Positions 3,682 to 25,550 of a stretch of DNA of 64,000 nucleotides are shown here, piece by piece. The notes under the pieces were generated by a model that made no database searches, was not told the DNA's origin, and worked only from the letters and a program-made list of their open reading frames with translations. This DNA is from Streptococcus cristatus AS 1.3089. Its GTDB lineage: Bacteria > Bacillota > Bacilli > Lactobacillales > Streptococcaceae. The stretch lies in contig NC_021175.1 in NCBI RefSeq assembly GCF_000385925.1, positions 1,590,213 to 1,654,212 on the forward strand, in the 5' to 3' direction. The translations under genes and the position numbers were made by a program. Position 1 is the first letter of the stretch, and the number at the start of each line of letters is the position of its first letter.

Positions 3682-4419
3682 ATGAACAAAAATATAAAAT
3701 ATTCTCAAAACTTTTTAACGAGTGAAAAAGTACTCAACCAAATAATAAAACAATTGAATTTAAAAGAAACCGATACCGTTTACGAAATTGGAACAGGTAA
3801 AGGGCATTTAACGACGAAACTGGCTAAAATAAGTAAACAGGTAACGTCTATTGAATTAGACAGTCATCTATTCAACTTATCGTCAGAAAAATTAAAACTG
3901 AATACTCGTGTCACTTTAATTCACCAAGATATTCTACAGTTTCAATTCCCTAACAAACAGAGGTATAAAATTGTTGGGAATATTCCTTACCATTTAAGCA
4001 CACAAATTATTAAAAAAGTGGTTTTTGAAAGCCGTGCGTCTGACATCTATCTGATTGTTGAAGAAGGATTCTACAAGCGTACCTTGGATATTCACCGAAC
4101 ACTAGGGTTGCTCTTGCACACTCAAGTCTCGATTCAGCAATTGCTTAAGCTGCCAGCGGAATGCTTTCATCCTAAACCAAAAGTAAACAGTGTCTTAATA
4201 AAACTTACCCGCCATACCACAGATGTTCCAGATAAATATTGGAAGCTATATACGTACTTTGTTTCAAAATGGGTCAATCGAGAATATCGTCAACTGTTTA
4301 CTAAAAATCAGTTTCATCAAGCAATGAAACACGCCAAAGTAAACAATTTAAGTACCATTACTTATGAGCAAGTATTGTCTATTTTTAATAGTTATCTATT
4401 ATTTAACGGGAGGAAATAA
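3682..4419 (+). CDS. ermB: 23S rRNA (adenine-N6)-dimethyltransferase Erm(B)
   Basis: Full-length 245-aa Erm(B). It dimethylates A2058 of 23S rRNA, giving resistance to macrolides, lincosamides and streptogramin B. The SAM-binding motif [10 protein letters not shown] is near residue 36 and the catalytic NIPYHLS motif near residue 101. The start follows GGAGAGATTAC. It is intact, with the complete leader upstream, so a functional inducible gene is expected. It lies in the foreign segment inserted after orf20. Confidence 0.99.
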
Positions 4420-4639: not shown

Positions 4640-4677
4640 AAAAATACTTCCTACGAAAATGTAGGGGGTATTTTTTT
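4640..4677. terminator. Bidirectional terminator between erm(B) and the ISL3 transposase
   Basis: AAAAATAC..CCTAC pairs with GTAGG..GTATTTTT. It can end both the plus-strand erm(B) transcript and the minus-strand transposase transcript. Confidence 0.75.
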
Positions 4678-5921
4678 ACGAAAAAATACAATCGATTCTT
4701 AAAAAGAAAAATTTTTGATTGGCAAAACCATAACAAGTTCGTTTTAGGGTTTTGATTTTGCGATTGATGCCTTCTAAAGGACCATTAGAGTATTCAAATT
4801 TAGCGCTATTTAAGACATATTTTCTGTTTTGACGAAGGGTTTGAATAGCAGTATCCATTTCTGTATTGGTTTTTTGGTAGTCTAAGATGGTTGACTCTAG
4901 TAATTCACTATTGCGCTCGTTTAGGGCTTTCGTGATATCTTGGTAAGTTTGGTATACTTCAGCGAACTTGGAAAATTTACTAGTAATGAGATCAACAGCA
5001 TTTTGGCGAGTCATATATTGTTTAACGCCGCGAAGAAAAACTACTTCTTCAGGGTGAAGATCTTCAGCTTTTTTATGGAATAGCTTCCAATGTGACTTCA
5101 TAATTTTATATTCTTGGCTCTGTTTATCAAGTTGCTTTAGGATAGAGATACGACAATTGTCCAAAGCGCGACCAGCTAATTGTACAAGGTGGAAGCGATC
5201 AATAATGATATTGGCATTAGGGAAAAGGCGATAGATAAAACTTTGATATTGAGCATTTAAATCAATTACAACTGATTGAACGCATTCGCGTTCGGCTTTT
5301 GAATAACGACTTTCAAAATAATCAACAATGGTAGGTGATAGACGATCCTGTAACTTTGTGACAATTTGGTGGGTTTCAGCGTCACAACAGATAAAGGACA
5401 TCACAGACTTAATTGAACGAAACTCGTCAAAACATAGATGCTTAGGCAACTTAGCCACACGATAGTGTGGTTCCATGCGCTCTAAGATTGTTCGACGAAC
5501 ACTGCTAGGAGAGCAGTGACACATTTCAGCAATAAGCTGACCAGATAAGCCTTTACGAGCTAAAAGCATGATTTGATTTTTGAGATCACTGGATAAGGTT
5601 TGATTTTCTTTGGTTAAATTAGTAATAGCACCAAAAGTAGTATGGCATGATTTACATTTATAGCGTTGTTTACGAAGCTCTAGTTCATATCTTCTCCCAT
5701 TTAAACTTGCCAGTCGTACATGAGTTTTGCGAAAGCCATCCTTATTAACTGTGGGAAAGCCACAGTTACGACAACGATTAATCGGATAAGAAAGAGTAGC
5801 TGTTATTAGCGTTATATACTCTTTAACAGAATCGTTGTTGTGTTCAGCTTCTTCAACAGAAATAATTTAATATTTTATCTTTAATTCCAAGAATATTTAG
5901 GATAGAATCATTATGGGACAT
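4676..5921 (-). pseudogene. ISL3-family transposase, frameshifted near its N-terminus
   Basis: An ATG at 5921 with AGAAGG upstream opens a frame (MSHNDSILNILGIKDKIL...) that hits a stop after 22 codons. The rest resumes in another frame from about 5865. It contains the zinc-finger pattern CRNC...CKSC (ISL3 zinc finger), an HTH, and the DDE domain including CFDEFR, IDRFHLVQ and EGINRKIK. A one-base loss near 5866 explains the break. Only 297 residues remain open from an internal ATG (5569..4676). Transposition from this copy is unlikely without frameshifting. Confidence 0.88.
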
Positions 5922-14232: not shown

Positions 14233-14349
14233 ATGCTTTGTATGCCTATGGTTATGCATAAAAATCCCAGTGATAAGAGTATTCATCACTGGAGATTTTT
14301 ATGCCCTTTTGGGCTTTTGAATGGAGGAAAATCACATGAAAATTATTAA
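14233..14349 (+). CDS. tet(M) leader peptide orf12, frameshifted variant of 38 codons
   Basis: It begins [16 protein letters not shown] as in Tn916 orf12. As I remember it, the canonical peptide has 28 residues and ends shortly before the tet(M) SD. Here TGGAGATTTTT stands where TGGGATTTTT is expected, so one extra A shifts the frame after codon 20. The frame then runs past the tet(M) start codon (14336) and stops at 14347..14349. The same base leaves a bulge in the terminator stem AAAAATCCCAGTGAT / ATCACTGGaGATTTTT (14259..14300). Possible effects are changed attenuation or coupling to tet(M) translation. Confidence 0.7.
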
Positions 14350-16255
14350 TATTGGAGTTTTAGCTCATGTTGATGCGGGAAAAACTACCTTAACAGAAAG
14401 CTTATTATATAACAGTGGAGCGATTACAGAATTAGGAAGCGTGGACAGAGGTACAACGAAAACGGATAATACGCTTTTAGAACGTCAGAGAGGAATTACA
14501 ATTCAGACGGCGATAACCTCTTTTCAGTGGAAAAATACTAAGATAAACATCATAGACACGCCAGGACATATGGATTTTTTAGCAGAAGTATATCGTTCAT
14601 TATCAGTATTAGATGGGGCAATTCTACTGATTTCTGCAAAAGATGGCGTACAAGCACAAACTCGTATATTGTTTCATGCACTTAGGAAAATAGGTATTCC
14701 CACAATCTTTTTTATCAATAAGATTGACCAAAATGGAATTGATTTATCAACGGTTTATCAGGATATTAAAGAGAAACTTTCTGCGGAAATTGTAATCAAA
14801 CAGAAGGTAGAACTGCATCCTAATATGCGTGTAATGAACTTTACCGAATCTGAACAATGGGATATGGTAATAGAAGGAAATGATTACCTTTTGGAGAAAT
14901 ATACGTCTGGGAAATTATTGGAAGCATTAGAACTCGAACAAGAGGAAAGCATAAGATTTCATAATTGTTCCCTGTTCCCTGTTTATCACGGAAGTGCAAA
15001 AAACAATATAGGGATTGATAACCTTATAGAAGTGATTACGAATAAATTTTATTCATCAACACATCGAGGTCAGTCTGAACTTTGCGGAAAAGTTTTCAAA
15101 ATTGAGTATTCGGAAAAAAGACAGCGTCTTGCATATATACGTCTTTATAGTGGCGTACTGCATTTGCGAGATTCGGTTAGAATATCGGAAAAGGAAAAAA
15201 TAAAAATTACAGAAATGTATACTTCAATAAATGGTGAATTATGTAAAATCGATAAGGCTTATTCCGGGGAAATTGTTATTTTGCAGAATGAGTTTTTGAA
15301 GTTAAATAGTGTTCTTGGAGATACAAAGCTATTGCCACAGAGAGAGAGAATTGAAAATCCCCTCCCTCTGCTGCAAACGACTGTTGAACCGAGCAAACCT
15401 CAACAAAGGGAAATGTTACTTGATGCACTTTTAGAAATCTCCGACAGTGACCCGCTTCTGCGATATTATGTGGATTCTGCGACACATGAAATCATACTTT
15501 CTTTCTTAGGGAAAGTACAAATGGAAGTGACTTGTGCTCTGCTGCAAGAAAAGTATCATGTGGAGATAGAAATAAAAGAGCCTACAGTCATTTATATGGA
15601 AAGACCGTTAAAAAAAGCAGAGTATACCATTCACATCGAAGTTCCACCGAATCCTTTCTGGGCTTCCATTGGTCTATCTGTAGCACCGCTTCCATTAGGG
15701 AGCGGAGTACAGTATGAGAGCTCGGTTTCTCTTGGATACTTAAATCAATCGTTTCAAAATGCAGTTATGGAGGGGATACGCTATGGCTGTGAACAAGGAT
15801 TGTATGGTTGGAATGTGACGGACTGTAAAATCTGTTTTAAGTATGGCTTATACTATAGCCCTGTTAGTACCCCAGCAGATTTTCGGATGCTTGCTCCTAT
15901 TGTATTGGAACAAGTCTTAAAAAAAGCTGGAACAGAATTGTTAGAGCCATATCTTAGTTTTAAAATTTATGCGCCACAGGAATATCTTTCACGAGCATAC
16001 AACGATGCTCCTAAATATTGTGCGAACATCGTAGACACTCAATTGAAAAATAATGAGGTCATTCTTAGTGGAGAAATCCCTGCTCGGTGTATTCAAGAAT
16101 ATCGTAGTGATTTAACTTTCTTTACAAATGGACGTAGTGTTTGTTTAACAGAGTTAAAAGGGTACCATGTTACTACCGGTGAACCTGTTTGCCAGCCCCG
16201 TCGTCCAAATAGTCGGATAGATAAAGTACGATATATGTTCAATAAAATAACTTAG
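14336..16255 (+). CDS. tetM: Tetracycline resistance ribosomal protection protein Tet(M)
   Basis: The full 639-aa EF-G-like GTPase that removes tetracycline from the ribosome. G1 is AHVDAGKT, G2/switch includes RGIT, G3 is DTPGHMDF and G4 is NKID, followed by the EF-G-like domains. ATG 14336 with GGAGGAAA upstream is the standard start; an in-frame ATG at 14321 overlaps the SD and is not used. No truncation. Regulation is by the upstream attenuator and leader peptide, which here carries an unusual indel. Confidence 0.99.
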
Positions 16256-18852: not shown

Positions 18853-20070
18853 ATGTCAGAAAAAAGACGTGACAATAAAGGTCGAATCTTAAAGACTGGA
18901 GAGAGCCAACGAAAAGACGGAAGATACTTATACAAATATATAGATTCATTTGGAGAACCGCAATTTGTTTACTCGTGGAAACTTGTGGCTACAGACCGAG
19001 TACCAGCAGGAAAGCGTGATTGTATCTCACTTAGAGAGAAAATCGCAGAGTTACAGAAAGACATTCATGATGGTATTGATGTTGTAGGAAAGAAAATGAC
19101 ACTCTGCCAGCTTTACGCAAAACAGAACGCTCAAAGACCAAAGGTTAGAAAAAACACTGAAACTGGACGCAAATATCTTATGGATATTTTGAAGAAAGAC
19201 AAGTTAGGTGTAAGAAGTATTGACAGTATTAAGCCATCAGACGCTAAAGAATGGGCTATTAGAATGAGTGAAAATGGTTATGCTTATCAAACCATCAATA
19301 ACTACAAACGTTCTTTAAAGGCTTCATTCTATATTGCTATACAAGATGATTGTGTTCGGAAGAATCCATTTGACTTTCAACTGAAAGCAGTTCTTGATGA
19401 TGATACTGTCCCTAAGACCGTACTAACAGAAGAACAGGAAGAAAAACTGTTAGCCTTTGCAAAAGCTGATAAAACCTACAGCAAAAATTATGATGAAATT
19501 CTGATACTCTTAAAAACAGGTCTTCGTATTTCAGAGTTTGGTGGTTTGACACTTCCAGATTTAGATTTTGAGAATCGTCTTGTCAATATAGACCATCAGC
19601 TATTGAGAGATACTGAAATTGGGTACTACATTGAAACACCAAAGACCAAAAGTGGCGAACGTCAAGTTCCTATGGTTGAAGAAGCCTATCAAGCATTTAA
19701 GCGAGTGTTAGCGAATCGAAAGAATGATAAGCGTGTTGAGATTGATGGATATAGTGATTTCCTCTTTCTTAATAGAAAGAACTATCCAAAAGTGGCAAGT
19801 GATTACAACGGCATGATGAAAGGTCTTGTTAAGAAATACAATAAGTATAACGAGGATAAATTGCCACACATCACTCCACATAGTTTGCGACATACATTCT
19901 GTACCAACTATGCAAATGCAGGAATGAATCCAAAGGCATTACAGTACATTATGGGACATGCTAATATAGCCATGACGCTGAACTATTACGCACATGCAAC
20001 ATTCGATTCTGCAATGGCAGAAATGAAACGCTTGAATAAAGAGAAGCAACAGGAGCGTCTTGTTGCTTAG
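18853..20070 (+). CDS. int: Tyrosine integrase Int-Tn916
   Basis: A full-length 405-aa tyrosine recombinase. An N-terminal arm-binding domain is followed by the SAM-like core-binding domain and the catalytic domain. Catalytic positions are visible: Arg in TGLRISEF, Lys in PKTKSGERQ, HxxR in HSLRHTF, His in MGHANIA and nucleophile Tyr in LNYYAHAT. It performs low-specificity integration into AT-rich DNA and excision with Xis. The gene appears intact, so the transposon could still excise. Confidence 0.97.
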   Translation: MSEKRRDNKGRILKTGESQRKDGRYLYKYIDSFGEPQFVYSWKLVATDRVPAGKRDCISLREKIAELQKDIHDGIDVVGKKMTLCQLYAKQNAQRPKVRKNTETGRKYLMDILKKDKLGVRSIDSIKPSDAKEWAIRMSENGYAYQTINNYKRSLKASFYIAIQDDCVRKNPFDFQLKAVLDDDTVPKTVLTEEQEEKLLAFAKADKTYSKNYDEILILLKTGLRISEFGGLTLPDLDFENRLVNIDHQLLRDTEIGYYIETPKTKSGERQVPMVEEAYQAFKRVLANRKNDKRVEIDGYSDFLFLNRKNYPKVASDYNGMMKGLVKKYNKYNEDKLPHITPHSLRHTFCTNYANAGMNPKALQYIMGHANIAMTLNYYAHATFDSAMAEMKRLNKEKQQERLVA

Positions 20071-20350
20071 TAGTACAAATGAATTTACTACTTATTTACC
20101 ACTTCTGACAGCTAAGACATGAGGAAATATGCAAAGAAACGTGAAGTATCTTCCTACAGTAAAAATACTCGAAAGCACATAGAATAAGGCTTTACGAGCA
20201 TTTAAGAAAATATAAAAAGATAATTAGAAATTTATACTTTGTTTATTTCAAAAATTGAATAAATTTGATTGAGACAGAAGATTTTTATAAAGTTAAATTT
20301 CAAAATTATGAGATTAGGTAAACACAAATACTAAGGATTTCTTAACTTAA

Positions 20351-20563
20351 CTATATAATCATACGTATGGCCTTCATCCCGCAATCAGAATCCTTTTGAT
20401 TTATAGGGATTCCAAATTTAATAAAAAAATCTCCCTTACAACTATTAAAAATTTCACTTTCTAATGGTATCCGTGACTCTAGATTTATTATAAAGTTTGT
20501 TTTATCACTTTTCTTTTCTAATATTTCAATAATTAAATATGAGAATAGTGCATCTTTAAACAT
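20351..20563 (-). CDS. Short unknown ORF next to the transposon right end
   Basis: A 70-codon frame beginning MFKDALFSYLIIEILEKK, with only a weak upstream SD. It resembles no family I know. Being near the Tn right end and the decayed island, it may be a gene remnant. The last codons (CGTATGATTATATAG) happen to resemble the 3' end of the HNH gene at 22200. Confidence 0.25.
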   Translation of the reverse strand: MFKDALFSYLIIEILEKKSDKTNFIINLESRIPLESEIFNSCKGDFFIKFGIPINQKDSDCGMKAIRMII

Positions 20564-20622: not shown

Positions 20623-21387
20623 TTATAGTTTAATGCAAAGTGTAGCTATATAGTCGTTTCCATAACGTGATAATCTATTTCTTTTATCACATGATTCATA
20701 AAAATCTATCATAGCGAGACCATTTTTAAGTTGTCCTCTAATCTGACTTTCTAAGGTATGGCTAAATTCATATCCATATTCTGGATTTATGGTTATTTTG
20801 CCTTCCGCTTCAAGCTCTTTTGAATTAAAAGGTATTGAAAACTTTAAAAGTAATTCCTCATCGGGTTTGTCCCATACAATGTCAGCATCATACATGTATA
20901 TCCAAGGGTTCATAAACCCGACCATTAACAATCCACCCTTTTTCAATACTCGAGAGGCTTCTTTATACATGTTTTCTAAATCTTCTATATATACATTTGA
21001 AACCGGATTAAAAATAATATCAAACGTTTCATTTTCAAATGGAAATGGTTTTGTCATATCGCCTTGAACTGTGTTGATTTTTAAGCCTTCTCTTTTAGCA
21101 ACCATCTCATCTCTTTGTAATTGTGATGTAGAAAAATCCATGATGGTGACATCATAACCTTTTGCAGCAAAAACGGGTCCCTGCTGTCCGCCACCACAAG
21201 CTAACCCTAATATCTTTTTTCCGTTTGCTTTTTCAAACCATTCTTTTGGAACTTTTTTCCCAACAGTTAATGCAACAGAAATTGGATGATTTCTAACTTC
21301 TTCTAATTCTTCATGTGTCAATGGCTCAGTATAGTCATTTTTGACATTATTCCATCTATCTTGATTTAATTTTATATAATTGTTCAT
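20623..21387 (-). CDS. Class I SAM-dependent methyltransferase
   Basis: A 254-aa Rossmann methyltransferase. Motif I is LGLACGGGQQGP (near residue 76), followed by an acidic strand end in TIMDFS, then GDMTKPFPF and FDIIFNPVSN. This is the Methyltransf_11/UbiE-like type acting on small molecules or unknown substrates. GAGGAG lies upstream of ATG 21387, and TATAAT-like bases near 21470 offer a promoter. It is monocistronic. It lies in the remnant island between the Tn916 end and the integrase fragment, so it is probably cargo of an older element. The substrate cannot be told. Confidence 0.8.
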   Translation of the reverse strand: MNNYIKLNQDRWNNVKNDYTEPLTHEELEEVRNHPISVALTVGKKVPKEWFEKANGKKILGLACGGGQQGPVFAAKGYDVTIMDFSTSQLQRDEMVAKREGLKINTVQGDMTKPFPFENETFDIIFNPVSNVYIEDLENMYKEASRVLKKGGLLMVGFMNPWIYMYDADIVWDKPDEELLLKFSIPFNSKELEAEGKITINPEYGYEFSHTLESQIRGQLKNGLAMIDFYESCDKRNRLSRYGNDYIATLCIKL

Positions 21388-21630
21388 CTTATAATCTCCT
21401 CGTAATTTTATATTATTTCAATTTAAGTTGGATGTGTTGCCATTACTTGATTTCATTTTATTATACCATATGTCCAATTACTATTATTTCAATATTTTCT
21501 TAATTAGTATTTTAAATTTATTTTCCTATATTAAATATCGAACCAAAGATTGTTTCTCGCACACGTGCTACTCTTGGTGGAGCTCCAGACGCAAATTATG
21601 AAGATAATGGTAAAAACACTCAAAGTTATA

Positions 21631-21818
21631 GGAAAGTTCAACTCACATTTTTCGTCACACACATATCAGCTTTTTAGCTGGTCAAGGAATCCCACTCGAA
21701 TCAATTCAAGATCGTGTTGGGCACACACGAGGAAGTCGAGTCACAGATATCTATTTGTACCTTACACAAAAAAACAAAAGATCTCATTATTCCTGTATTA
21801 GATTCGTTAACTGAATAA
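21631..21818 (+). pseudogene. C-terminal remnant of a tyrosine integrase
   Basis: Reading plus strand from about 21640 gives THIFRHTHISFLAGQG and then the QDRVGHTRGS motif with a following Tyr, clear for catalytic boxes II of a phage/ICE integrase. Its end is shifted by one extra A in an A-run near 21773; correcting it restores a terminal ...VLDSLTE and a stop at 21816..21818. Upstream catalytic and N-terminal parts are missing. The stop lies 25 bases before the duplicated fba end, the normal position for int relative to att. Confidence 0.8.
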
Positions 21819-21842: not shown

Positions 21843-21921
21843 AAGAAAAAAGGTTTATCCAAATTGGATAAACCCTATTATATCAAGCATTTACAAGCTT
21901 CTTATGCTTTACCTTCTGAAC
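21843..21921 (+). repeat. Duplicated fba 3' end (att copy A)
   Basis: About 79 bases nearly identical to 25473..25550. They include the fba terminator palindrome (AGGTTTATCC / GGATAAACC) and the last seven fba codons. Differences are two single-base indels and one substitution. Similarity stops at CTGAAC. It represents one boundary of an inserted element. Confidence 0.85.
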
Positions 21922-22179: not shown

Positions 22180-23112
22180 TCACTTTTCTCTCAACTCAAC
22201 TATATAATCATATGTATCCTTTTTTAATTTTGATAGTGAATGATTTAAATAGTCGTCAAAACTATCATTGGCAATCTCTCCAAATATCATACTATCGAAA
22301 AATTCTTCTGAAAATTCATTTACTATATTACCTTTATCTCCCAAAAGAGAAATTAAATAATCACGATATTCTTTACAATATTTTTCTTCTTTCATAAACA
22401 TTTCAGCAACGTCTTTTTTATGAATTTCATACGCATCTTCTAATTTTAAAATATTATCTTCCTGTGATTTCTCACCAAAAAGAATCTTTATTTTGCTGTC
22501 CTTACTTGATGGAGACACTACAAATTTAACTTCTATATCCTCCTCAAGATCAAAAGGGCAAAATTCATAATCATTGGCCTGTTTTATCCTATTACAAGTG
22601 CTGCACGAGGGAACTAAATTTGAAAGTGTCAAAGCGAAAAAAGGAAACTTGTCTTTGCTGTAATAATGGTCAAACTCACATCCTAATTTATCGTGCCTAG
22701 AATTAATATAATTTCTATTACAATAGGGACATACGGTTACATCAAGATTTTTGACTAAAATCATATTATTTCTAATCCCAATAGTTTCATCTATTTTATG
22801 AAAAAATTCAGAATAATAACTTTTATAAATTCTCAAATCTTCTTTACTTTGCTTTAAAAGATTTTTATATCTCGGTTTGTCTGTAGCTAAAGAATCACAA
22901 AATTTTTGTAGATCTGAGAAATTCATAGTAAGTAATTCATAAAAGCTCCCTATCTTTATTTGGGGAGATTTTTTCTGTGGAAGTTGATTTAATAAAGATA
23001 TCATAGCTGTTCCCTTACCATTAGTTTTAACAATTGATGGTTTCTTTTTTAAAACAAAATTATAATATCTATATAATTCCTGTTGACTATAAAAACTATT
23101 TATTTTTATCAT
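22180..23112 (-). CDS. HNH endonuclease, PtuB-like
   Basis: A 310-aa protein. Residues 128-174 carry a zinc-bound HNH core: CPYC (128-131), FDHYY with His149, then CSTCN (170-174). The surrounding LSNLVPSCSTCNRIK is typical of HNH nucleases of defence systems such as Septu PtuB. The N-terminal ~120 and C-terminal ~100 residues are helical and unassigned. It is the last gene of a three-gene operon. Its ATG overlaps the restored end of the ATPase gene by 17 bases. It is probably the DNA- or RNA-cutting effector. Target unknown. Confidence 0.82.
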   Translation of the reverse strand: MIKINSFYSQQELYRYYNFVLKKKPSIVKTNGKGTAMISLLNQLPQKKSPQIKIGSFYELLTMNFSDLQKFCDSLATDKPRYKNLLKQSKEDLRIYKSYYSEFFHKIDETIGIRNNMILVKNLDVTVCPYCNRNYINSRHDKLGCEFDHYYSKDKFPFFALTLSNLVPSCSTCNRIKQANDYEFCPFDLEEDIEVKFVVSPSSKDSKIKILFGEKSQEDNILKLEDAYEIHKKDVAEMFMKEEKYCKEYRDYLISLLGDKGNIVNEFSEEFFDSMIFGEIANDSFDDYLNHSLSKLKKDTYDYIVELREK

Positions 23113-24684
23113 TTTTTCCTTCTTGAAGTTCTTTTATTTTATCTTGATATATCTTGATCTTTCTTTGGTACTCTAAAATTTGACGTTCTTCTCTACCCCA
23201 TTTTATACTTTCAAGCTGAATTTTCAAATGATTACGAATAATATCTTCACCAATCATATCTACTAATTTTTCAAAAAAATTGCGAATATCCTGAGCCGGT
23301 GTATCTTTTTTAAATGTATTCTGTATCTCTTAATAAACTGTTTATATGTTTTATTTCGTTGAATCATTTCTTCATTTGAGCAACTCCCAAATATTTTCAA
23401 TAAGTCTTCAATCACTTGTTGTGAAAAAGCTCCTTTGGGAGCCTCTAAGAAAAATGAATTCTTAAATAAACTATAAATATTCTGGCCAAAAGTTTTTAAT
23501 ATTTTATTAGGCTCTTCTGGTAAATATATTACATCCTCTGCTAGAAAGTCTGAGAGAATAATAGGTGAATGTGTTGATAATATTACCCGAACTGCATCAT
23601 TCCCTTTCTTCATAATTTTACCGATAATAGGTAAAACACTGTTTACCCAATTTCTTTGCCACTCAGGATGCAGCCCTAGGTCAACTTCATCAAGCAATAC
23701 CAGTACTTTACTACTATTAAGATTACTTGTAACACTATTTAAACGTCCAAGTAAATTAAGTAATGCTAGTTCACCCGAACTAAGTCCATTCCATTCAAAT
23801 TCAAGGACAGAAAATGTTTCTTGTGAAATCAAATTATCCGATTCTTCGGTATTTAAACTTTTAAAAATATCTTCTAACGTCTTTCTATCATCATCCTTAG
23901 TAAAGACAAAGTTTCTTCCAACATTACTAATAATAGTACTTAAAGCACTAAAGAAATTCCTTAAATGAGCTATCTTTGATTTTGTATTGCCATTTAAAAA
24001 CTTATTTAAATCCACATAGAATCTTTCAGTTGGTTGTATAGTTTTAGGATCTATTTCATTAATTAAAGATACGATTTGTTCACGACTCAAGTCGAAAACA
24101 ATATAATCGCTAAATACTGCAAAGAATTTTCTCAATAATACTTTTATTATTTTCTTTTCTTTATCTACATATTCTATTATTTCTTTTAGTTTGTTTTCCC
24201 ATTCTTTATTCAATGGATTACCTTTTAAATAATATTTATCATATGAATGTATCCCTTCACCTATTTGATTTAATCTAAGAAACACTTTTTTATCCGAAAG
24301 TTCAATTAAATTTTGCCATTTCGTATTTCTATTTTCCTCTTTATAATAATCAATCACTACTTTTACTTGTTTGATCGAATCTTCACGATTCAAGTTTACG
24401 AGATCCATCGTATTTAAATATGCAGAGGTTGAAATGTCCATAGAACCACTAGGAATAACTTTTATATTGTTCAACTCTACGGAAGCTGAATACTTAACAA
24501 AAGAATAAGCTAATATATCCTTGGTGTCCTGATAGAATTTTGCAATTGAATCCTCATCCTTTTCTAATAAAGAATTTATCAACATTGTTTTTCCCGAACC
24601 GTTTTCACCAACTATACAGTGCACAGATTCAATTTCATTAGAATAATTTAATCTATATTTAAAGCTACTACGATTATTTTTCAT
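23096..24684 (-). pseudogene. ABC/SMC-type AAA ATPase of the island operon, frameshifted near its C-terminus
   Basis: A 473-aa open frame (24684..23263) with Walker A GENGSGKT (residues 26-33), a signature-like LSSGELALLNL, Walker B VLVLLDEVDLGLHP and the H-loop STHSP, as in AAA_15/AAA_21 proteins (PtuA, RecF-like). No TOPRIM domain is seen. After KTYKQFIK the sequence continues in another frame (EIQNTFKKD...GREERQILEYQ) to a stop at 23096..23098. Loss of one A near 23330 explains it. The restored protein would be ~529 aa with a coiled-coil tail. The truncated form keeps the whole ATPase domain, so it may still work. Confidence 0.8.
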
Positions 24685-24685
24685 T

Positions 24686-25360
24686 TTAAATTTCCTTTAC
24701 TATACATTCAAAGTGTGTAAGCTTACAATAAGTATTTAATCTACTGAGAACTATTTCTATATCTTTCATTTCCTCTTCATGTTTCTGTTTATCATTATCA
24801 GGAATTTTTACTGTTAACGCACCTTGAATAGGCCCTGTTTGATTTTTTCTACCAATAATATGTCTAAAGCCCTCTTCTCTATCTTTGTAAATTTTATTAA
24901 TATTTTGAATTCTTGACAGACTGGGGGCAAAAGGATGATCACCACACCATTTTTCAATATCCACATCTAACGGATATGGGATAAAAATTCGAATTACATT
25001 CTTAAGAATTAGTTTATACTTCCAACTTTGTCGACCTGCCCAAATATAGTCTAATTCTTTAGCTTCGATTTTCTTAAAAACAGTAGCTAAATAAATTGCA
25101 GCATTATTATTCGTAATAAATATAAGATCTCCCGATTTAGGTGGATTTATTTTTAAATTATTATCATTCTCACTATAGCCCCAAACAGAGAAGGATTCTT
25201 CTATGGATTCTAGAATTTCTTTTATATCATTCAAATCTCCATTTTCAGATTCTAAAGCAGATATAATAATAGATTTGGAAACCTTCTTCTCTATTGTATT
25301 AAGATAAGGTATTATTACACCCGTCCCCCCAGCCATTACAAATACATCCTGATCTGTCAT
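24686..25360 (-). CDS. Island operon first gene; possible PUA/EVE-like base-recognition protein
   Basis: A 224-aa protein I do not recognise by name. The middle (about residues 70-135) has the pattern GDLIFI...IYLATVFKKIEA...YIWAGRQSWKYKL...IFIPYP. This resembles PUA-like EVE/YTH-type domains that read modified bases in restriction systems. The N-terminus (MAGGTGVIIPYLNTIEKK) is unassigned. AGGAG precedes the ATG and TATAAT lies at about 25439..25444. One base separates its stop from the ATPase start, so both are co-translated. The EVE assignment is tentative. Confidence 0.6.
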   Translation of the reverse strand: MTDQDVFVMAGGTGVIIPYLNTIEKKVSKSIIISALESENGDLNDIKEILESIEESFSVWGYSENDNNLKINPPKSGDLIFITNNNAAIYLATVFKKIEAKELDYIWAGRQSWKYKLILKNVIRIFIPYPLDVDIEKWCGDHPFAPSLSRIQNINKIYKDREEGFRHIIGRKNQTGPIQGALTVKIPDNDKQKHEEEMKDIEIVLSRLNTYCKLTHFECIVKEI

Positions 25361-25472: not shown

Positions 25473-25550
25473 GAAGAAAAAGGTTTATCCAAATTGGATA
25501 AACCTATTATATCAAGCGTTTACAAGCTTCTTATGCTTTACCTTCTGAAC
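25473..25550 (+). repeat. Native fba 3' end (att copy B)
   Basis: Matches 21843..21921 over about 79 bases. It contains the fba stop (TTA, 25531..25533 on this strand), the last codons and the minus-strand terminator AGGTTTATCC aatt GGATAAACCT followed by TTTTT (25480..25505). Integration here keeps fba intact. Confidence 0.85.

What the first reader, a model, noticed from the sequence alone, without database searches (positions are those of the whole stretch)
22180..25360. Three-gene putative defence operon: PUA/EVE-like protein, SMC-type ATPase, HNH nuclease
Seen: three tightly packed minus-strand genes (1-base gap, then 17-base overlap after frame correction), AT-rich compared with the core genome, between two copies of an att-like site. 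Known: ATPase plus HNH pairs make up Septu (PtuAB), and PUA-like EVE/YTH domains read modified DNA in restriction systems. Inference: the combination with a possible base-reader as first gene could be a modification-sensing relative of Septu. I do not know a named system with this exact layout.
Basis: partly seen in the sequence, partly recalled or inferred. Interest (0 to 1): 0.85.

Follow-up and report, generated by a model that had tools for sequence, protein, structure and literature searches.

The report
Base-reader gene joined to Septu-like pair
A small mobile DNA insertion in a Streptococcus carries a Septu-like phage-defence gene pair (an ATPase and a nuclease) preceded by a third gene whose predicted shape resembles domains that recognise chemically modified bases, which suggests how such a system might be switched on; in this strain the ATPase gene is interrupted.

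The parts
24686..25360 (-). Gene 1: 224-aa EVE/YTH-like (PUA-superfamily) putative modified-base reader; residues 1-165 were modelled; W60, W107 and W113 invariant in the 6 operon proteins
   Evidence: No Pfam match but one chance-level hit, none in PADLOC/NCBIfam; AF2 model pLDDT 67, best Foldseek/VIA hits PUA-superfamily; profile-profile to EVE with shuffles; conservation
23263..24684 (-). Gene 2: PDC-M62A / PtuA-like ATPase, 473-aa ORF with Walker A, LSSGE signature, LLLDEVD Walker B and THSP; reading frame broken near its 3' end
   Evidence: PADLOC PDC-M62A E 9e-43; Pfam AAA_21; solved PtuA-type chains matched by the intact S. mitis homologue; motifs; frame change
23096..23322 (-). Out-of-frame remainder of gene 2 (C-terminal ~75 residues), overlapping gene 3 by 17 bases
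   Evidence: tblastn with L043 ATPase, second frame, 48% identity; stop read by eye
22180..23112 (-). Gene 3: PDC-M62B / PtuB-like HNH nuclease, 310 aa, CPYC...DH...N...CxxCN...K intact
   Evidence: PADLOC PDC-M62B E 2e-30; Pfam HNH above cut-off; invariant residues in a 10-sequence alignment
21847..21921 (+). Left direct repeat (att-like): duplicated fba 3' end and terminator
25477..25550 (+). Right direct repeat (att-like), at the 3' end of fba
   Evidence: empty site in L113
21641..21811 (+). Remnant of a tyrosine integrase (C-terminal part) just outside the left repeat; the stretch is also present in the empty-site relative L113
   Evidence: Pfam Phage_integrase E 2.7e-5, 24.5 bits, below the curated cut-off of 27.1

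Best explanation
This is a horizontally moved three-gene defence operon: an EVE/YTH-like reader of modified bases (gene 1) working with a Septu-like PDC-M62 ATPase-HNH effector (genes 2 and 3). Inferred: base binding, complex formation, the nuclease target and anti-phage action. In this strain the ATPase frame is broken, so the operon may be inactive here.
Confidence: 0.5

Rival explanations
1. Gene 1 is an inhibitor (antitoxin-like lid) of the ATPase-HNH effector rather than the sensor of modified bases: it holds the nuclease silent, and infection removes it by some other cue.
For: In VcaM4I the EVE domain and linker block the HNH site, and loss of both gives a toxic nuclease (PMC7897488, abstract). 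In retron-Eco7 the PtuAB toxin is held by other components (PMC11555353, passages). Gene 1 comes first in the operon, as antitoxins often do (recalled).
Against: Most related pairs have no gene 1, so a lid is not generally needed. The conserved Trp positions look like a binding pocket more than a lid (inference).
Confidence: 0.2
2. One reading: it recognises a modified base in tRNA or other RNA and guides the HNH to cut it, stopping translation during infection.
For: Septu EcB88 cuts tRNA-Tyr and retron-Eco7 PtuAB depletes it (PMC13096335, PMC11555353, passages); YTH domains, frequent in the structure list, read m6A in RNA; some EVE-family systems are predicted to act on RNA (PMC11090510, passages).
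Against: The best structural match is a DNA-binding McrB domain, two loci lie beside McrBC-type genes, and the archaeal fusions are to HNH_2, a family known mainly from DNA nucleases (recalled).
Confidence: 0.15
3. Gene 1 is an independent passenger or a regulator that shares a promoter with the pair without being part of its mechanism.
For: A related EVE-like domain is fused to HTH in a probable regulator on the opposite strand beside an ATPase-HNH pair in Exiguobacterium; gene 1 is rare overall.
Against: All strong homologues from gene-1-led searches lie directly before the pair, with spacing from +1 to -40 bases in five other genomes, and EVE-bearing ATPases cluster on the tree (3 changes against a shuffled mean of 5.8, 0 of 500 as low), although near relatives can produce such clustering.
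Confidence: 0.1

Closest known systems
PDC-M62 (PADLOC candidate system, PDC-M62A ATPase + PDC-M62B HNH)
   Same: Both large genes have their best PADLOC matches here; ATPase-HNH order as in 70 of 71 related pairs (most of those pairs were not themselves run against PADLOC).
   Different: A third gene, the EVE/YTH-like reader, precedes the pair; 3 of 69 ATPase-led pairs had it (2 of 68 without the query's own genome).
Septu (PtuAB), including the retron Ec78 effector
   Same: ATPase plus HNH pair; the 10 distinct solved chains matched by the intact S. mitis ATPase are labelled PtuA, retron Ec78/Ec83 ATPase or AAA family ATPase; in a B. cereus survey 203 gene sets were called both PDC-M62 and Septu (PMC11811056, passages).
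   Different: NCBIfam PtuA and PtuB equivalog cut-offs are far from met (44 of 500 and 16 of 150 bits); three genes, not two.
EVE-HNH modification-dependent endonucleases (VcaM4I)
   Different: Separate subunits with an ATPase between them; the HNH belongs to the PtuB/PDC-M62B type.
McrBC with YTH/EVE-like reader (T. gammatolerans McrB)
   Same: Closest predicted fold of gene 1; reader, NTPase and nuclease functions together.
   Different: ABC-like ATPase instead of the McrB GTPase, HNH instead of PD-(D/E)XK, reader not fused to the NTPase.
OLD/ABC-ATPase-HNH dyads noted beside BREX loci (PMC12839542, passages)
   Same: ABC-type ATPase coupled to an HNH nuclease in a defence locus.
   Different: No EVE/YTH-like third gene is mentioned with these dyads in the passages seen; sequence relation not tested.

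Membership tests
PDC-M62 | ATPase matching PDC-M62A next to HNH protein matching PDC-M62B | tested here: met
   E 9e-43 and 2e-30; adjacent genes. PADLOC's own thresholds and system rules were not visible.
Septu (PtuAB) | PtuA ATPase and PtuB HNH by NCBIfam equivalog cut-offs (retron Ec78 type) | tested here: not met
   NF041760 44.1 of 500 bits; NF041761 16.4 of 150 bits. So it is not filed as PtuAB; it may still work like it.
Septu (PtuAB) | Two-gene ATPase + HNH operon | tested here: not met
   A third gene precedes the pair in the window and in five other genomes.
Septu (PtuAB) | Infection-triggered nucleic acid cleavage needing ATPase and HNH motifs | not testable with these tools
   HNH motif intact and ATPase motifs present, but the window ATPase frame is broken.
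EVE/YTH (PUA superfamily) | PUA-like fold | tested here: met
   AF2 core model, pLDDT 67; the 50 rows shown are of McrB-N, EVE, YTH and ASCH type (several labels recalled); prob 1.00 to 6p0f. A moderate-confidence model.
EVE/YTH (PUA superfamily) | Pfam EVE curated cut-off | tested here: not met
   No EVE match for the window protein; sub-cut-off matches in relatives, e.g. E 0.023 in L026. Hence 'EVE/YTH-like', not a Pfam EVE member.
EVE/YTH (PUA superfamily) | Position of the extra strand that separates EVE, YTH and ASCH | tested here: inconclusive
   Model too uncertain in loops and at the C-terminus; criterion from PMC7897488 section 18.
EVE/YTH (PUA superfamily) | Binding of a modified base | not testable with these tools
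   Only conservation of W60, W107, W113 and Y90 in 6 of 6 operon proteins.
McrBC | McrB GTPase and McrC in the operon | tested here: not met
   Not among the three genes; McrBC-type genes lie nearby in L043 and L105.

The most novel reading that the evidence does not exclude
A Septu-like ATPase-HNH effector has, perhaps more than once, recruited a separate EVE/YTH-like subunit as its trigger, making a modified base (in phage DNA or in tRNA) the direct activating signal of a Septu-type system; this would give a Septu relative a known class of sensor, and would join type IV restriction and Septu into one reader-ATPase-nuclease theme.
Probability: 0.35. Interest if true: 0.8.

Novelty: new variant of a known kind. 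Interest (0 to 1): 0.6.

Why it matters
In the passages I read, what activates PtuAB was not settled (the retron-Eco7 paper says it may be triggered by an unknown mechanism). A dedicated subunit with a base-reader fold gives a concrete, testable trigger hypothesis. It also extends known reader-nuclease combinations (EVE-HNH fusions, McrBC) to a new partner, and shows such a cassette inserted as a small unit at the fba 3' end of a Streptococcus.

Tried and rejected
Gene-1-led searches that found nothing: phages, plasmids, viral contigs (with the archaeal HNH protein), genome contigs by pattern. The one plasmid hit (with the L104 protein) led to the haloarchaeal HNH fusions. Weak hits of gene-1 searches (E 0.003-0.009: L035, L036, L037, L041, L042/L106, L144) were rejected: none of their ORFs matches the family, ATPase or HNH profiles at E<=0.05.

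Not followed up: ATPase relatives in viral contigs (3 loci), plasmids (39 records) and phages (2 records) were not examined for neighbours.

Idea that L050's upstream gene is a reader: rejected; it is a different accessory family. Profile-profile with only three stand-alone EVE proteins was not significant. The first AF2 model (3 rows) was too poor to use; its Foldseek list had no significant hit. Programmed frameshifting as the reason for the ATPase frame change: not tested; the S. mitis homologue is in one frame, so it is not conserved there.

The survey most likely to have described ABC-ATPase-HNH systems with readers (Krishnan et al. 2020, NAR, gkaa726) and the T. gammatolerans McrB paper (PMC6970917) are not held, so prior description cannot be excluded. 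Searches for the layout or its parts in print.

Full report
Where it is. The window lies in a single-contig 2.14-Mb genome of Streptococcus: the nearest full copy of the operon is in a same-genus genome (G093) whose contig length and position equal those of S. mitis SK564. Bases 1-20070 hold part of a Tn916-type element (gene set recalled) with erm(B) and tet(M) and an integrase with the Tn916 DNA-binding domain. Right of it, between an integrase remnant and the fba gene, lies the three-gene operon.

The insertion. A 75-column repeat (97.3%, one gap) lies at 21847-21921 and 25477-25550 and is the fba 3' end with its terminator. Of 23 relatives' fba loci compared, one, L113 (G008), aligns on both flanks (94-95%); there the flanks meet at a single repeat copy and everything between the repeats is missing, though its left flank also differs at window 21489-21636. 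So ~3.63 kb holding only the operon and short flanks most likely arrived as a unit. In S. mitis SK564 the window region 20000-27500 matches over the operon and three 31-nt stretches, one of them just upstream of gene 1; fba is not in the 15.6 kb held, so the site differs. An integrase fragment lies beside it there too. No integrase was seen inside the insertion; mobilisation in trans is an inference.

The pair. The ATPase and HNH proteins match PADLOC PDC-M62A (9e-43) and PDC-M62B (2e-30) far better than the best PtuA (1.8e-17) or PtuB (4.6e-7) profile. Ten distinct solved chains match the intact S. mitis ATPase at E<=0.01, labelled PtuA, retron Ec78/Ec83 ATPase or AAA family ATPase; the HNH protein matched none of note. 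NCBIfam PtuA and PtuB cut-offs are not met. The HNH residues C128, C131, H149, N165, C170, C173, N174 and K177 are invariant in 10 of 10 aligned sequences. Among 80 loci examined, 71 pairs distinct by ATPase sequence were found, 70 in the order ATPase-HNH; 3 loci were duplicates and 6 gave no pair by my rule. Most of these pairs were not themselves run against PADLOC.

The broken frame. Against the intact S. mitis ATPase, the window gene aligns in one frame to residue 472 and in another from residue 477, the change lying at 23303-23322. The operon in this strain may therefore be inactive, or the change may be an assembly error or programmed slippage; this is untested. Intact copies exist.

The first gene. 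The 224-aa protein has no family match beyond one chance-level Pfam hit. Relatives were found directly before the pair in L019/L043, L026, L044, L104 and L105. Six operon proteins align with F7, G12, W60, G61, D78, Y90, W107 and W113 invariant. Their profile also matches an HTH-fused protein beside a pair in Exiguobacterium (33 bits) and 6 of 7 haloarchaeal HNH proteins tested, at 11 to 38 bits, the lower of these weak, plus one small haloarchaeal protein at 24 bits. One of the HNH proteins, in Salinigranum, sits in an apparent operon with a tRNA-guanine transglycosylase homologue and a BREX-type ATPase. Of 16 members of this extended family, 5 match Pfam EVE at E<=1, best 0.0013; the window protein does not.

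Co-location. Gene-1-led searches gave strong hits in 5 genomes in all: 2 of 197, 4 of 295 and 5 of 395, overlapping sets with the own genome counted in each; all 5 have the ATPase and HNH directly downstream. Only the own genome was strong among 398 phylum genomes. ATPase-led searches (15 of 299 genomes; 61 loci) gave 69 of the 71 pairs, 3 with gene 1: L043, L026 and L044. L043 is the query's own genome, first found by gene 1; without it the fraction is 2 of 68. L104 and L105 were found by gene 1 and are left out. At least four of the pairs begin within 200 bases of the end of the DNA held, so an upstream gene could not be seen there. On a FastTree tree of 73 ATPases the six EVE-associated ones need 3 changes (shuffled mean 5.8, 0 of 500 as low; starred branches force at least 2), in two places: window, L043, L044 and L105 within a starred set of 10 that also holds 6 Streptococcus ATPases without a reader gene seen upstream, and L026 with L104 apart. 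The program warns of long branches.

Neighbours. L043 and L105 have McrC plus an AAA_5 (McrB-like) gene; L026 has two SLFN-type helicase genes, one with GIY-YIG, and a MazG-like gene upstream; L104 has the MazG-like gene, Cas9, and two genes whose starts resemble the L026 SLFN genes (not searched); L044 has the GIY-YIG-SLFN gene.

Mechanism. Septu EcB88 needs both ATPase and HNH motifs and cuts tRNA-Tyr during infection (PMC13096335, passages). I therefore propose a reader-gated Septu-like effector, about 50% likely as stated; an inhibitory lid, an RNA-directed reader and a passenger gene are the rivals.

Novelty. The parts are known kinds; ABC-ATPase-HNH dyads are in print (PMC12839542, passages). 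The combination with a reader as a three-gene operon was not found in searches of the held library, which lacks a key survey. It is a new variant of a known kind.

Noticed in passing
window 1-20070: Tn916-type element with tet(M) at 14321-16255, erm(B) at 3682-4419, an ISL3-family transposase at 4676-5569 and a Tn916-type integrase at 18853-20070.
   Followed up: partly
window 20623-21387: SAM methyltransferase gene between the Tn916-type integrase and the operon; the stretch is also present in the empty-site relative L113.
   Followed up: no
window 20340-20368 and 22189-22217: A 29-nt stretch left of the methyltransferase gene is 90% identical to the 3' end of the HNH gene; it may be a remnant of an earlier copy.
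   Followed up: no
L026 3722-10961, L104 3245-11491: Similar larger gene string in two order-mates: SLFN-helicase genes (one with GIY-YIG; in L104 judged from protein starts only), MazG-like, reader, ATPase, HNH; possibly one larger system.
   Followed up: partly
   Followed up: partly
L086, L087, L093: Related ATPase-HNH pairs with a conserved upstream gene (ATP-grasp-like in L087, the one scanned) and, in L087, SIR2-like and pentapeptide-repeat genes around them.
   Followed up: partly
L053 5759-11181, L062 3630-8969: Two tandem related ATPases followed by one HNH gene.
   Followed up: no
L065 9537-10298 and 10464-10985: HTH-EVE-like protein and a second protein matching the same profile, on the opposite strand downstream of an ATPase-HNH pair in Exiguobacterium.
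   Followed up: partly
L145 1807-5990: Haloarchaeal plasmid genes in a row: tRNA-guanine transglycosylase homologue, BREX-type ATPase and an EVE-like-HNH nuclease; may link base modification and its reading.
   Followed up: no
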